In this document: piece after piece, positions 1,948-29,155 of the stretch
Numbering within the stretch: position 1 is the first letter of the stretch
Layout of the letters: every line of letters begins with the position of its first letter
Assembly (NCBI GenBank): GCA_025350055.1
Contig: JANXYK010000008.1
Coordinates: 62,001 to 126,000 of the forward strand
Origin: Gammaproteobacteria bacterium
GTDB taxonomy: Bacteria; Pseudomonadota; Gammaproteobacteria; Steroidobacterales; Steroidobacteraceae
DNA: 64,000 nucleotides
Reading direction: 5' to 3'
The notes under the pieces: generated by a model
Seen by the model: the letters and a program-made list of their open reading frames with translations, nothing else
What the model was told of the DNA's origin: nothing
Databases searched by the model: none
Program-made: the position numbers and the translations under genes

Positions 1948-2064
1948 GCCGGCACCCTAGCACGCAAATAGTCCGTGCCTCCCGCCCGGGCCGCTGTGGG
2001 CTACCGTTTGGCGGGTTCGACGGCTAGAGTGTCGCCATGATGTGCCGTGGAAGATGCGGAAACT

Positions 2065-3204
2065 ATGGCTGACAACATAAGGAGCGGCCTGCAGCTGCGC
2101 TCCGAAATCACTTCCGGTGGTGAGCTGCGCCTTTCGCTGCTAGACCTGCCGACACCCGATCCCGGGCCGGATGAAGTCGTGGTGCGCATCGAGGCGACGC
2201 CGATCAATCCTTCCGATATCGGAGTGCTGTTCGGTGCGGCAGACATGACCACGGCGCGTGCTTCAGGAACTGCGGCCGCGCCGGCGATCACGGCCGACGT
2301 GCCACCGCAACGCATGCGTAGCATGGCGGCCCGGCTCGACCAGTCGAAGCCGGTTGGCTACGAAGGCGCGGGCGTCGTCGTGGCGGCCGGTGCCTCGGCT
2401 GCAGCGCAGGCGCTGCTGGGCCAGACTGTGGCCGCGCTCGGCGATGCAATGTATTCGCAGTATCGCTGCCTAAAGGTCGATGACTGCCTGGTGTTGCCGG
2501 CTGGCACCATGCCTGCCGAGGGCGCATCCTGTTTTGTGAACCCGCTGACGGCGCTGTGCATGGTGGAGACCATGCGCCGTGAAGGGCACACGGCGCTGGT
2601 GCACACCGCAGCTGCGTCCAACCTGGGTCAGATGCTGCAGCATGTGTGCGTGAAGAATGGCACCAAGCTGGTGAATATCGTGCGCAACGCCCAGCAGCAG
2701 GAGCTGTTGCGCAGTATCGGCGCCACCTGGGTGTGCAATTCGAGTTCGCCCGATTTCATCGAGGAGCTGACGCAGGCGCTGACCGAAACTGCAGCGACCA
2801 TTGCCTTCGATGCCGTGGGTGGTGGCAAGCTGGCGGGCCAGATACTGGCCTGCATGGAAGCGGCGCTGATCCGCAACGCCGTGGAAATTGGCCCCTACGG
2901 CACCTCTGTGCACAAGCAGGTCTATGTGTACGGATCGCTGGATACTGGCGCGATGGAAATCACGCGTACCTTCGGCCTGAGCTGGGGCGTGGGTGGGTGG
3001 CTGGTGTTCCCGTTCCTGCAGCGCATCGGCAAGGTGAAGACGCAGCAGTTCAAGCAGCGCATCGCCTCGGAACTCAAGAGCACTTTTGCCAGCCATTACA
3101 CACGCGTGGTGTCATTACGCGGCGCGCTGCAGCTTGAGGCTGTGGCCGAATACGCTCGGCGCTCCACAGGCGCCAAATACCTGATCAATCCCGGTCTGGA
3201 ATGA
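2065..3204 (+). CDS. Zinc-independent medium-chain dehydrogenase/reductase (quinone oxidoreductase-like)
   Basis: The protein (about 379 residues) has the MDR fold: an N-terminal GroES-like half (PDPGPDEVVVRIEATPINPSDIGVL, residues 25-60) and a Rossmann half with TALVHTAAASNLGQMLQ and AFDAVGGGKLAGQIL. The catalytic-zinc cysteine/histidine pattern of alcohol dehydrogenases is not present, so a quinone-oxidoreductase or enoyl-reductase type NAD(P)H reaction is more likely. I chose the ATG at 2065, which begins MADNIRSG; an in-frame GTG at 2047 would add six residues and cannot be excluded. It diverges from the GMC oxidoreductase with roughly 100 bases between them, and converges on the EF-G gene. 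Its substrate is unknown. Confidence 0.75.
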   Translation: MADNIRSGLQLRSEITSGGELRLSLLDLPTPDPGPDEVVVRIEATPINPSDIGVLFGAADMTTARASGTAAAPAITADVPPQRMRSMAARLDQSKPVGYEGAGVVVAAGASAAAQALLGQTVAALGDAMYSQYRCLKVDDCLVLPAGTMPAEGASCFVNPLTALCMVETMRREGHTALVHTAAASNLGQMLQHVCVKNGTKLVNIVRNAQQQELLRSIGATWVCNSSSPDFIEELTQALTETAATIAFDAVGGGKLAGQILACMEAALIRNAVEIGPYGTSVHKQVYVYGSLDTGAMEITRTFGLSWGVGGWLVFPFLQRIGKVKTQQFKQRIASELKSTFASHYTRVVSLRGALQLEAVAEYARRSTGAKYLINPGLE

Positions 3205-3214
3205 AATGTCGGGA

Positions 3215-3249
3215 ATAAAAACCCTGCCGGGACCTGTCTCCCGGCGGGG
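3215..3249 (-). terminator. Rho-independent terminator of the EF-G gene
   Basis: Arms 3222-3232 and 3239-3249 pair over 11 positions (one G-T wobble) around the six-base loop CCTGTC. Read on the minus strand, the stem is followed directly by a T-run (complement of 3215-3221). This is the classic layout for ending the EF-G message. On the plus strand no U-run follows, so it is at best a weak stop for the convergent dehydrogenase gene. Confidence 0.8.
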
Positions 3250-3266
3250 ATCGTCTGTACGCCTGC

Positions 3267-5423
3267 TCAGGCCGAGGCGGCTGCCTTGGCCTTGGCCACT
3301 TCGGCGATGACCTCATCGGCCACCATCTTCGGTACCGGGTCGTAGTGCGAGAACTCCATCGTGTACGAGGCACGACCACTGGTCATGCTGCGCAGTTGCC
3401 CGATGTAGCCGAACATTTCTGACAGTGGCACCAGCGCGACCACGGCGGTGTTGGTGCCGCGCTCGAGCTGTTCCTGGATCGTGCCGCGACGGCGGTTCAA
3501 GTCGCCGATCACATCGCCGAGGTTGTCGCCCGGGGTCACGGTCTCGACCCGCATCACCGGCTCGAGCAGCACACTCGAGGCCTTGCGCATGGCTTCGCGG
3601 AACGCGGCCTTGGCCGCGATCTCGAAGGTCAGCGCATTCGAGTCGACATCGTGGTAGCTGCCGTCGAACAGCACGGCGCGGAAATCCACGGTGGGATAGT
3701 GCGCCAGCACGCCATCTTCTTTCTGCATGCGTAGGCCCTTCTCGACCGCCGGAATGAATTCCCTCGGCACCGAACCGCCCTTGGTCTCATCGACGAACTC
3801 GAAGCCGGCGCCGCGCTCCAGCGGTTCGAACTTGATCCACACTTCGGCGAACTGGCCCGAACCGCCGGTCTGCTTCTTGTGCGTGTAGTGTTCTTCGATC
3901 TTCCTGGTCGGCGTTTCGCGATAGGCCACCTGCGGCTCGCCCATCGTGCCCTCGACACCGAATTCGGTGCGCATGCGATCAAGCGTCACCTCGAGGTGCA
4001 GCTCGCCCATGCCGCGCAGGATCGTCTGGCCGGTCTCGCGATCGGTCTCCAGGTGCAACGAGGGATCGGCGCGCACCATCTTGCCAAGCGCTGCGCCGAA
4101 CTTCTCCTGCTCACCCTTGGTCTTGGCCTTCACCGACACGCTGATCACGGGGTCGGGGAAGCGCATGCGCTCGAGCACCACAGGATTGCCCGCATCGCAC
4201 AGCGTGTCACCGGTTTCGGTATCGGCCAGTGACACCAGCGCGACGATGTCGCCGGCGCGCGCCTCTTCAATGGGATTGGCTTCCTTGGCGAACATCTCGA
4301 CCATGCGGCCGATCTTCTCGCGCTTGCCGCGCGTGGAGTTCTGTACCGAAGCGCCCTTGGTCAGCACGCCCGAGTACACGCGTATGAAGGTGAGTGCGCC
4401 ATAGGCGTCGTTGATCACCTTGAAGGCCAGCGCCGAGAACGGCTCGTCATCGGAGCACTTGCGCTCGCCGATGGTTTCGCCATCGGCATCCACGGTCTTG
4501 ATAGATTCGACATCGGTGGGCGCCGGCAGGTAATCGACCACGGCGTCGAGCACCTGCTGCACGCCCTTGTTCTTGTACGAGGAGCCGCACAACACCGGCG
4601 TGAAGGCCGAAGTCAGCGTGCCCTTGCGGATGGCTTCGCGCAGCACCGTCGCCGAGGGCACGGTGCCGTCGGAGATGTAGGCTTCCATGGCCGCGTCGTT
4701 CTGCTCGAGGCAGGTGTCGACCAGTTCGGTGCGGTACCTGTCGATCTCGGCCAGGAGCTTGCGATCGCTCGGTACCGTGATATGCAGCTTGTCGGCGATG
4801 TCCGGGGTGATCTCGAGCACCTGCCAGATCGAATCCTTGTCGTCCGAATCCCAGACCAGGGCCTTCATCTCGATCAGGTCGATCATGCCCTTGAAGTTGT
4901 CTTCCGAGCCGATCGGCAGCTGCACCGGCAGCGGGCGGGAGCCGAGGCGCTTCTTGATCATGTCCACGCAGCGCACGAAATTGGCACCGCTGCGGTCCAT
5001 CTTGTTGATGTAGCACATGCGCGGCACGTTGTAGTTGTCCGCCAGGCGCCAGTTGGTTTCGGACTGCGGTTCCACGCCTGCCACGCCGTCGAACACCACG
5101 ACCGCGCCGTCGAGTACGCGCAGCGAACGGTTAACCTCGATGGTGAAATCGACGTGCCCGGGGGTGTCGATCAGGTTGATCTTCTTGTCGCGCCAGAAGG
5201 CCGACACCGCGGCGCTTTGGATGGTGATGCCACGCTTCTGCTCCTGCTCGAGGTAGTCAGTGGTGGTCGAAGTCTTCAGATCCTTGGTGTCATGGATGTC
5301 AATGATCGTGTGCTTGCGTCCCGTGTAATACAGGATGCGCTCGGTGGTGGTGGTCTTGCCGGCATCGACGTGGGCGATGATGCCGATGTTGCGGATATCT
5401 GAAAGCGCGGTTGTACGAGGCAT
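3267..5423 (-). CDS. fusA: Elongation factor G, stand-alone paralogue
   Basis: A 718-residue translational GTPase, slightly longer than the usual ~700. The G domain shows G1 [12 protein letters not shown] (17-28), G3 DTPGH (86-90) and G4 NKMD (140-143); domains II to V follow, with GELHLEV and the domain IV/V segments intact. EF-G drives translocation on the ribosome and, with RRF, ribosome recycling. Two things are unusual. The gene is not next to rpsL, rpsG or tuf, so it is outside a str operon. The switch I stretch (about residues 41-64) reads [21 protein letters not shown], roughly five residues longer than the EVHDGAATMDWMEQEQ form of canonical EF-G. It is flanked by its own terminator, so it is monocistronic. 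It may be a second EF-G specialised for one step or for stress; whether the genome has another copy cannot be seen here. Confidence 0.9.
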
Positions 5424-27731: not shown

Positions 27732-27786
27732 ATTCCTTGCAATAACTGATTCGCCTACAGGCGGGTGCCAGCGATCCGTCGCGCGC

Positions 27787-27800
27787 TTGATCTTCGTCAA
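27787..27800 (+). promoter_or_regulatory. Anr/Fnr box upstream of the HemN-like gene
   Basis: TTGATCTTCGTCAA differs by one base from the Fnr/Anr consensus TTGAT-N4-ATCAA. Its centre is about 55 bases before the HemN-like ATG; a class II activated start (centre at -41.5) would put transcription start near 27835. The four-cysteine Anr/Fnr regulator encoded two genes downstream keeps the DNA-reading residues for this motif, so oxygen-limited activation of this gene, and perhaps of the regulator itself, is likely. Confidence 0.6.
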
Positions 27801-27848
27801 GGCGCAAATGAATGCCGCGGCCTAGCCTCGGCGCATGAAGTCAGTTCC

Positions 27849-28319
27849 ATGTGCGCTCTGAACACCGAATCGGGCGAGGCGGCGCTGCGTCGGGCGATCC
27901 AGGACAGCAACCAGGATCCCATCCCGCGCGATATCGTGCTGCAGGTTTCGTTGGCCGGGCAGGGCGGCGAGGCCTTTCTGCAACGGCTGTACCGCGAGAT
28001 GGAGTGCTACGCGCCCTTGCTGGCGCGCGATCGGCAGATCATCGAACTCTGTTTCGTCGGTGCCGGCCTCGGGCAACTGCAGCGGGCGCAGCGCGAGGAT
28101 CTGCTGCAATCGCTGGCGCAGCACTTTGCGCCGGCGCGTACCGTGAGCAGCCATTGTGAGCCCATGCAGCATTGCGATGTGCTGGGTCTGGGTCCGGGTG
28201 CGCTCAGCCGCTTCGGAAGCTGCCAGACCAGGAATGCTGCTGACCTGCAGCAGTACTGTGCGGCGATCGATGGCGGTCGGTTGCCGGTCGTGGAGAGCCA
28301 GCAACTCGATGCGCCGTAA
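27849..28319 (+). CDS. Shrunken HemN-like protein without the radical-SAM cysteine motif
   Basis: 156 residues from ATG 27849. Two blocks resemble oxygen-independent coproporphyrinogen III oxidase (HemN). Residues 43-93 (FLQRLYREMECYAPLLARDRQ, then LCFVGAGLGQLQRAQ) correspond to the segment after the Fe-S loop, with the GGGTP motif degraded to VGAGL. Residues 108-147 (CDVLGLGPGALSRFG, then NAADLQQYCAAIDGGRLPV) match the later DLLGMGVSAIS region. The CxxxCxxC cluster motif and the roughly 200 residues between the blocks are missing, so it cannot be a radical-SAM coproporphyrinogen oxidase. It lies under an Anr box and upstream of anr and norZ. Either it is a decayed hemN or a small haem- or regulator-related protein kept for another role. 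Reading frame is intact. Confidence 0.55.
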   Translation: MCALNTESGEAALRRAIQDSNQDPIPRDIVLQVSLAGQGGEAFLQRLYREMECYAPLLARDRQIIELCFVGAGLGQLQRAQREDLLQSLAQHFAPARTVSSHCEPMQHCDVLGLGPGALSRFGSCQTRNAADLQQYCAAIDGGRLPVVESQQLDAP

Positions 28320-28361: not shown

Positions 28362-29105
28362 GTGCACCGCGCCGCGCCTCACAGTGGGCCGTTTCCGGAT
28401 GACGGCAATGAGCTCAGGTTCTGTTCCACCTGTGCTTTCGGTGCCGTGTGCATGCCCTCGGGCGTCGACAAACCCGCCTTGCAGGTGCTGCATTGCCTGG
28501 TGGAGCACGTCGGCCCGTTCCGCGAGGGCGAGCATCTGTTTCGTGCGCATGAGGCCTTCGGCGCGATCTTCGCGGTTCGCGGTGGCACGGTAAAAACCCG
28601 CTTGATCGACAGCCTGGGTCGCGAACAGGTGCTGGGGTTCTATCTGCCGGGCGAAATGGTGGGGCTCAATGGCATCCATCCGGATCACTATCCCTGCGAT
28701 GCCGTGGCGCTCGACAGCGTCTATCTGTGCCGTTTTTCCTTCCGCGCGCTCGAGACGCTGGCGGCGCGCATCCCGGGCATCCAGCAGCAGCTGTTCCGCC
28801 TGCTCAGCAAGGACATCGGTGTCGCTTCGCTCCTCGCGGGCGATTTCAGCGCCGATGAGCGCGTGGCCGCGTTCCTCGTCAGCATTGCCGACCGCTTTGC
28901 GGCCCGTGGCTTTTCCACCAGCGCGCTACACCTGTCGATGCCGCGATCCGATATTGCCAACTACTTGCGACTTGCCGCGGAAACCGTCAGCCGCGTGCTG
29001 CGGCGATTCCAGGACCAGGGCCTGATCAGCGTGGCCGGGCGCGAGGTGAAATTTACTGCCCCGCAGGCATTGCGTGCGCTGGCGCGCAATGTGTTGACTA
29101 CCTAG
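28362..29105 (+). CDS. anr: Anr/Fnr-type oxygen-sensing transcription factor
   Basis: 247 residues from GTG 28362, the only start that keeps the N-terminal cysteines. Cys21, Cys24 and Cys30 (CSTCAFGAVC) and Cys112 (DHYPCDAV) match the four ligands of the [4Fe-4S] cluster of E. coli Fnr. The cyclic-nucleotide-binding-like beta-roll spans about 45-140, and the Crp-type helix-turn-helix has AETVSR (206-211), whose Glu, Ser and Arg read the TTGAT half-site. The protein therefore should dimerise and bind DNA under low oxygen, and may also respond to nitric oxide through cluster damage. It sits between the HemN-like gene and norZ, both preceded by matching boxes. Position beside a nitric oxide reductase would also fit a DNR-like role, but DNR proteins lack these cysteines. 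Confidence 0.9.
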   Translation: MHRAAPHSGPFPDDGNELRFCSTCAFGAVCMPSGVDKPALQVLHCLVEHVGPFREGEHLFRAHEAFGAIFAVRGGTVKTRLIDSLGREQVLGFYLPGEMVGLNGIHPDHYPCDAVALDSVYLCRFSFRALETLAARIPGIQQQLFRLLSKDIGVASLLAGDFSADERVAAFLVSIADRFAARGFSTSALHLSMPRSDIANYLRLAAETVSRVLRRFQDQGLISVAGREVKFTAPQALRALARNVLTT

Positions 29106-29141: not shown

Positions 29142-29155
29142 TTGACCTGGATCAG
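29142..29155 (+). promoter_or_regulatory. Anr/Fnr/Dnr box upstream of norZ
   Basis: TTGACCTGGATCAG fits the Fnr/Anr/Dnr pattern TTGAY-N4-RTCAA with one mismatch in the second half. Its centre is 68 bases before the norZ ATG, so a class II promoter would start near 29190 and leave a leader of about 27 bases that contains AGGGAG (29204-29209) seven bases before the ATG. The spacing supports a functional activator site. Confidence 0.6.

What the first reader, a model, noticed from the sequence alone, without database searches (positions are those of the whole stretch)
27849..28319. HemN-like miniprotein without the radical-SAM site, under an Anr box
Seen: two HemN-like blocks joined with about 200 residues deleted and the cluster cysteines absent, in an intact 156-codon frame, with a TTGAT-N4-GTCAA site upstream and anr/norZ downstream. 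Known: hemN is a classic Anr target. The intact frame suggests selection, perhaps as a haem or regulatory accessory in NO/low-oxygen response, rather than simple decay.
Basis: partly seen in the sequence, partly recalled or inferred. Interest (0 to 1): 0.6.

Follow-up and report, generated by a model that had tools for sequence, protein, structure and literature searches.

The report
Shrunken, cluster-less HemN beside anr
A haem-making enzyme gene next to the bacterium's oxygen-sensing switch has lost its chemistry and shrunk to a third of its size, yet evolution has kept the small protein intact, so it probably does a different, non-enzymatic job.

Summary
Window 27849-28319 is an intact 156-codon frame joining two HemN blocks (TIGR00538, 33 bits; VIA-align Z 13.9 to E. 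coli HemN). It lacks the CxxxCxxC loop, GGGT, the middle barrel and the C-terminal domain. A perfect TTGAT-N4-GTCAA site lies upstream; anr and norZ follow.

Relatives do carry full hemN here: hemN-anr is the ancestral order. But the remnant is not neutral. A second species has the same short form before anr (46% identical, same end points, so truncated in their common ancestor). Codon ML gives omega 0.16 (omega = 1 rejected, p = 2e-7). Seven genomes of a sister genus carry a ~380-420-residue cluster-less form, also directly before anr, omega 0.14-0.22. The nine form one clade (97/95) with two shared derived residues (G117, R121). The part the short form deleted is the fastest-evolving part of the longer form.

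Best reading: an old HemN pseudoenzyme family, made with Anr from an Anr-type promoter, trimmed to a miniprotein in one lineage. Its constant partner is anr, not norZ. The biochemical role (haem/porphyrin binder, Anr partner, or coupling spacer) is inferred, not shown. I found no description of this family in the searched literature.

The parts
27787..27800 (+). Anr/FNR-type box TTGATCTTCGTCAA; its centre lies 41.5 bases upstream of about 27836, consistent with a class II promoter
   Evidence: homologous sites 47-62 bases before the start in G002, G145, G142, G017, G207
27823..27828 (+). possible -10 element TAGCCT (weak, inferred)
   Evidence: read from sequence by spacing from the box; not tested
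27849..28319 (+). 156-codon cluster-less HemN remnant (pseudo-HemN miniprotein)
28362..29105 (+). anr (FNR-family regulator with N-terminal cysteines); constant neighbour of the remnant
29142..29155 (+). second Anr/Dnr-like box TTGACCTGGATCAG (one mismatch) before norZ
   Evidence: listed on the - strand as CTGATCCAGGTCAA
29217..31469 (+). norZ-type quinol nitric oxide reductase

Best explanation
The frame encodes a non-catalytic, HemN-derived protein (a pseudoenzyme), made as the first gene of an Anr-activated hemN-anr operon. Shown: the common (most likely ancestral) arrangement in the family is Anr box - hemN - anr; in the ancestor of this clade hemN lost its [4Fe-4S] loop and SAM motif; the protein stayed under purifying selection; in the window's lineage the middle barrel and the C-terminal domain were then removed, leaving one strand-helix-strand-helix unit plus the HemN 318-366 strand block, predicted to pack as in HemN. 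Inferred: Anr activates the promoter, and the small protein works by binding, not chemistry. Since anr is its only constant partner, the likeliest roles are a small partner or modulator in the low-oxygen Anr response, or a porphyrin/haem binder made when haem-dependent respiration is switched on. I cannot choose between these two binding roles.
For: Same short form before anr in G002, with the same deletion and the same C-terminal end; all seven g14 genomes have a cluster-less form directly before anr. Pairwise ML omega 0.16 for the short pair (LRT against omega = 1: 27.4, p 1.6e-7) and 0.14-0.22 in g14 pairs (p < 1e-22). Third-position identity of 0.50 under omega = 1 predicts about 16% amino-acid identity; 46% was seen. 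GC by codon position is 0.73/0.46/0.79 (p 6e-10). Chance of no stop in both lineages is about 7e-6 to 2e-9 at one substitution per site per lineage. The indels between the two short forms are all in frame. Nine cluster-less forms make one clade, 97/95, with G117 and R121 shared and absent from canonical HemN at the anr site. The block lost in the short form is 38% identical within g14, against 60-66% for the retained blocks. AlphaFold model pLDDT 86.9; Z 13.9, 148 residues at 2.5 A on HemN.
Against: Only two short-form sequences are known, both from draft genomes; synonymous sites are near saturation, so omega values are rough. Omega is higher than for anr and full HemN, so constraint is relaxed. 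With only the two short rows the structure model is poor (pLDDT 51.7), so its confidence comes from HemN rows. No expression data. The long, fast branches could be joined artificially. No ligand-site residue is conserved that would point to haem or SAM.
Confidence: 0.62

Rival explanations
1. The open frame matters only in cis: ribosomes crossing it protect the anr transcript from polarity or couple its translation to anr. The amino-acid sequence is mostly irrelevant, and hemN decays around that need.
For: It lies between the Anr-type promoter and anr; in g14 and G024 the anr frame overlaps the 3' end of pseudo-hemN by tens of bases; in the window the gap is 42 bases.
Against: Amino-acid-level constraint along the whole short frame (omega 0.16; N part p 1e-5, C part p 0.004), block-wise conservation and shared derived residues are not expected if only openness matters.
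Confidence: 0.15
2. Slow decay: a pseudogene caught before its first stop codon.
For: Canonical hemN sits here in relatives; constraint is weaker than on canonical HemN; G024 shows a separate full-length copy with a broken cysteine motif and a spare hemN elsewhere.
Against: The truncation predates the split of two species whose synonymous sites are near saturation, and both frames are still intact; seven g14 genomes also keep the frame.
Confidence: 0.13
3. The protein is an inhibitor or partner of another HemN/HemW (dominant-negative half-barrel).
For: It keeps a HemN-like half-barrel surface; HemW-like proteins are present in all carriers searched.
Against: G000 and g14 have no canonical HemN to act on.
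Confidence: 0.06

Closest known systems
HemN, oxygen-independent coproporphyrinogen III dehydrogenase (TIGR00538; PDB 1OLT)
   Same: Homologous over two blocks; same gene neighbourhood and Anr box as hemN-anr in relatives and, per PMC6588701, hemN flanks anr in Pseudomonas and carries Anr boxes
   Different: No CxxxCxxC, no GGGT, no middle barrel, no C-terminal domain; 156 versus about 466 residues
HemW / Campylobacter CgdH2 (HemN-family haem-binding proteins without coproporphyrinogen activity; PMC10320005)
   Same: A HemN relative used for something other than coproporphyrinogen oxidation; a model for a haem-binder role
   Different: CgdH2 keeps the cluster motif and HemW its HNxxYW motif; neither is in the short form, which is also far smaller
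Pseudoenzymes in general (PMC5106787, PMC10211241)
   Same: Retained fold, lost catalytic motif, purifying selection
   Different: No radical-SAM/HemN pseudoenzyme of this kind, nor one reduced to a third, turned up in the searches made here

Membership tests
HemN (oxygen-independent coproporphyrinogen III dehydrogenase) | Radical-SAM CxxxCxxC [4Fe-4S] motif | tested here: not met
   loop deleted in the window, G002 and all g14 forms
HemN (oxygen-independent coproporphyrinogen III dehydrogenase) | SAM-binding GGGT motif | tested here: not met
   VGAGLG in the window
HemN (oxygen-independent coproporphyrinogen III dehydrogenase) | Score over TIGR00538 cut-off, full barrel plus C-terminal domain | tested here: not met
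   33 bits against 325; domain absent
HemN (oxygen-independent coproporphyrinogen III dehydrogenase) | Common descent with HemN at the anr locus | tested here: met
HemW haem chaperone | HNxxYW haem-binding motif | tested here: not met
   absent from the translated sequence
HemW haem chaperone | Binds haem | not testable with these tools
   needs protein
Pseudoenzyme (retained, non-catalytic) | Catalytic motifs lost while protein-level purifying selection persists | tested here: met
Pseudoenzyme (retained, non-catalytic) | Produced and has a function | not testable with these tools
   needs expression and deletion
Pseudogene | Broken frame and neutral substitution pattern | tested here: not met
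   intact frame; omega = 1 rejected

The most novel reading that the evidence does not exclude
A so far undescribed family of [4Fe-4S]-free HemN derivatives is a dedicated partner of the oxygen sensor Anr (for example binding porphyrin or Anr itself to tune the switch), and in one lineage it has been reduced to a 156-residue half-barrel that folds on its own.
Probability: 0.22. Interest if true: 0.75.

Novelty: new variant of a known kind. Interest (0 to 1): 0.5.

Why it matters
If true, it shows a radical-SAM enzyme turned step by step into a small non-catalytic protein at one fixed place beside a master oxygen regulator, with the stages preserved in living relatives: full enzyme, cysteine-broken copy, cluster-less long form, miniprotein. 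It would also add a possible layer to the Anr low-oxygen response, and it warns against reading an anr-linked 'hemN' as anaerobic haem synthesis.

Tried and rejected
Pfam gave no hit for the short frame. A scan of 84,980 species genomes with short-form peptide patterns gave no further short form: it returned the G002 record and one ordinary full HemN (checked). 396 genomes of the order also gave only G000 and G002. Other g1 members mostly lack anr altogether; the distant FNR-type hits in G011 and G009 have no HemN-like frame beside them in the fetched DNA. Initial guess that short and g14 forms arose independently: dropped after the larger tree (the smaller tree was unresolved). The second structure model from the two short rows alone was poor and was not used. 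NG86 dN/dS (0.52) overestimates omega here because it ignores skewed third-position composition; the ML fit was used instead, though ML dS values are saturated. The upstream in-frame GTG start at 27765 was rejected: the Anr box would lie inside the coding region. Hits L020 and L021 are unrelated proteins. Literature searches found no cluster-less HemN family.

Full report
Observation. The frame at 27849-28319 is open for 156 codons. It matches HemN weakly but clearly (TIGR00538 33 bits; 1OLT the only PDB sequence hit) and has no Pfam hit. A perfect Anr/FNR-type box, TTGATCTTCGTCAA, is at 27787-27800; by spacing it fits a class II promoter starting near 27836 (inference). anr and a norZ-type quinol NO reductase follow.

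What relatives have. In the family, the order Anr box - hemN - anr is common: full, cysteine-intact HemN directly before anr in G017, G183, G197, G207 and G140, several with the NO reductase next (a box within one mismatch was found in G017, G183 and G207, none in G197 and G140). Pseudomonas also keeps hemN beside anr with an Anr box (PMC6588701). So hemN is most likely the ancestral gene at this place. Two departures exist. G024 has a full-length copy with the second cluster cysteine replaced (CFRPRLCC), GGGS for GGGT, and a second hemN elsewhere. All seven genomes of one sister genus (g14) have a roughly 380-420-residue copy with the cluster loop deleted. In the window's own genus only two of 15 genomes have this anr (G000 and G002; the best other hits, in G011 and G009, are 39% and 35% identical), and both have the short form before it.

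Not neutral. The two short forms share the big deletion and the C-terminal end point, so the truncation most likely happened before they split; what differs between them accumulated afterwards. They are 46-47% identical in protein, with third-position identity of 0.50, the same as in anr. Under omega = 1 such divergence predicts about 16% identity. ML gives omega 0.16, rejecting 1 at p = 1.6e-7, with both halves significant. Codon-position GC asymmetry is intact. The chance of no stop in both lineages without selection is at most about 7e-6 at one substitution per site per lineage. g14 pairs give omega 0.14-0.22, against 0.03-0.04 for anr and about 0.08 for full HemN: constrained, but less so than an enzyme. 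Caveats: two short sequences only, saturated synonymous sites, draft genomes.

One clade. On 155 shared columns with 23 rows, the nine cluster-less forms are one side of a branch with 97/95 support; G024 falls with canonical HemN. They share G117 and R121; position 117 is S or T in the canonical motifs listed (a few have G one place on, and K or R occurs at the position of R121). Long branches make this less than certain. The part the short form deleted, the middle barrel, is the fastest-evolving part of the g14 forms (38% identity, against 60-66% in the retained blocks, 55% in the C-terminal domain, and 73% for the same region in canonical HemN). This suggests that constraint on the barrel was lost first and its DNA later, in the window's lineage.

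Structure. With 15 rows the model is confident (pLDDT 86.9, pTM 0.83) and superposes on E. coli HemN residues 30-366, 148 residues at 2.5 A, Z 13.9, next best 4.0. The joined pieces are thus predicted to pack as they do in HemN. With only the two short rows the model is poor (51.7), so independent folding is plausible, not shown.

Function. Radical-SAM catalysis is made very unlikely by the missing motifs. anr is the constant neighbour; norZ is not: in G002 a nirK-cytochrome c frame follows anr, and among seven g14 genomes norZ was seen next to anr in two. A non-catalytic binding role in the Anr low-oxygen response is the best-supported reading; haem or porphyrin binding and direct Anr contact are both open. 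Cis effects on anr translation are the main rival, since in g14 and G024 the anr frame overlaps the 3' end of the hemN-like frame, but they do not explain amino-acid conservation along the whole frame.

Context of haem synthesis. G000 has HemF but no canonical HemN; G002 has a cysteine-intact HemN elsewhere but no HemF; g14 has neither, nor ChdC, yet has ferrochelatase. So carriers are not expected to use this locus for coproporphyrinogen oxidation, and g14 has an unexplained gap in haem synthesis.

Novelty. Pseudoenzymes are a known kind; a cluster-less, anr-linked HemN family with a miniprotein end stage was not found in the literature searched. I rate it a new variant of a known kind.

Noticed in passing
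G027, G142-G147 (sister genus g14); All seven genomes have ferrochelatase but no HemF, no canonical HemN and no ChdC: no known coproporphyrinogen oxidase, only the cluster-less HemN and a HemW-like protein.
   Followed up: partly
window 29142-29155: A second Anr/Dnr-like box (TTGACCTGGATCAG, one mismatch) lies between anr and norZ, so norZ may have its own low-oxygen or NO promoter.
   Followed up: no
L091 (G024), 2058-3476: A separate, apparently independent loss of the HemN cluster motif (CFRPRLCC, GGGS) in a full-length copy before anr, with another hemN elsewhere in that genome.
   Followed up: partly
L089 2223, L093 5336, L063 4819: In several relatives the Anr box sits about 47-49 bases before the hemN start codon, which with usual class II spacing would make the mRNA nearly leaderless.
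   Followed up: no
window 27835-27861: An ATG lies at the box spacing seen in relatives but out of frame with the 156-codon ORF (8 codons, then TGA); the ORF start at 27849 has only a weak ribosome site, whereas G002 has GGAGG.
   Followed up: no
L069 4252-6174 (-): Downstream of anr in G002 is a nirK-like copper nitrite reductase fused to a cytochrome c domain in place of norZ (read from the translation, not scanned).
   Followed up: no
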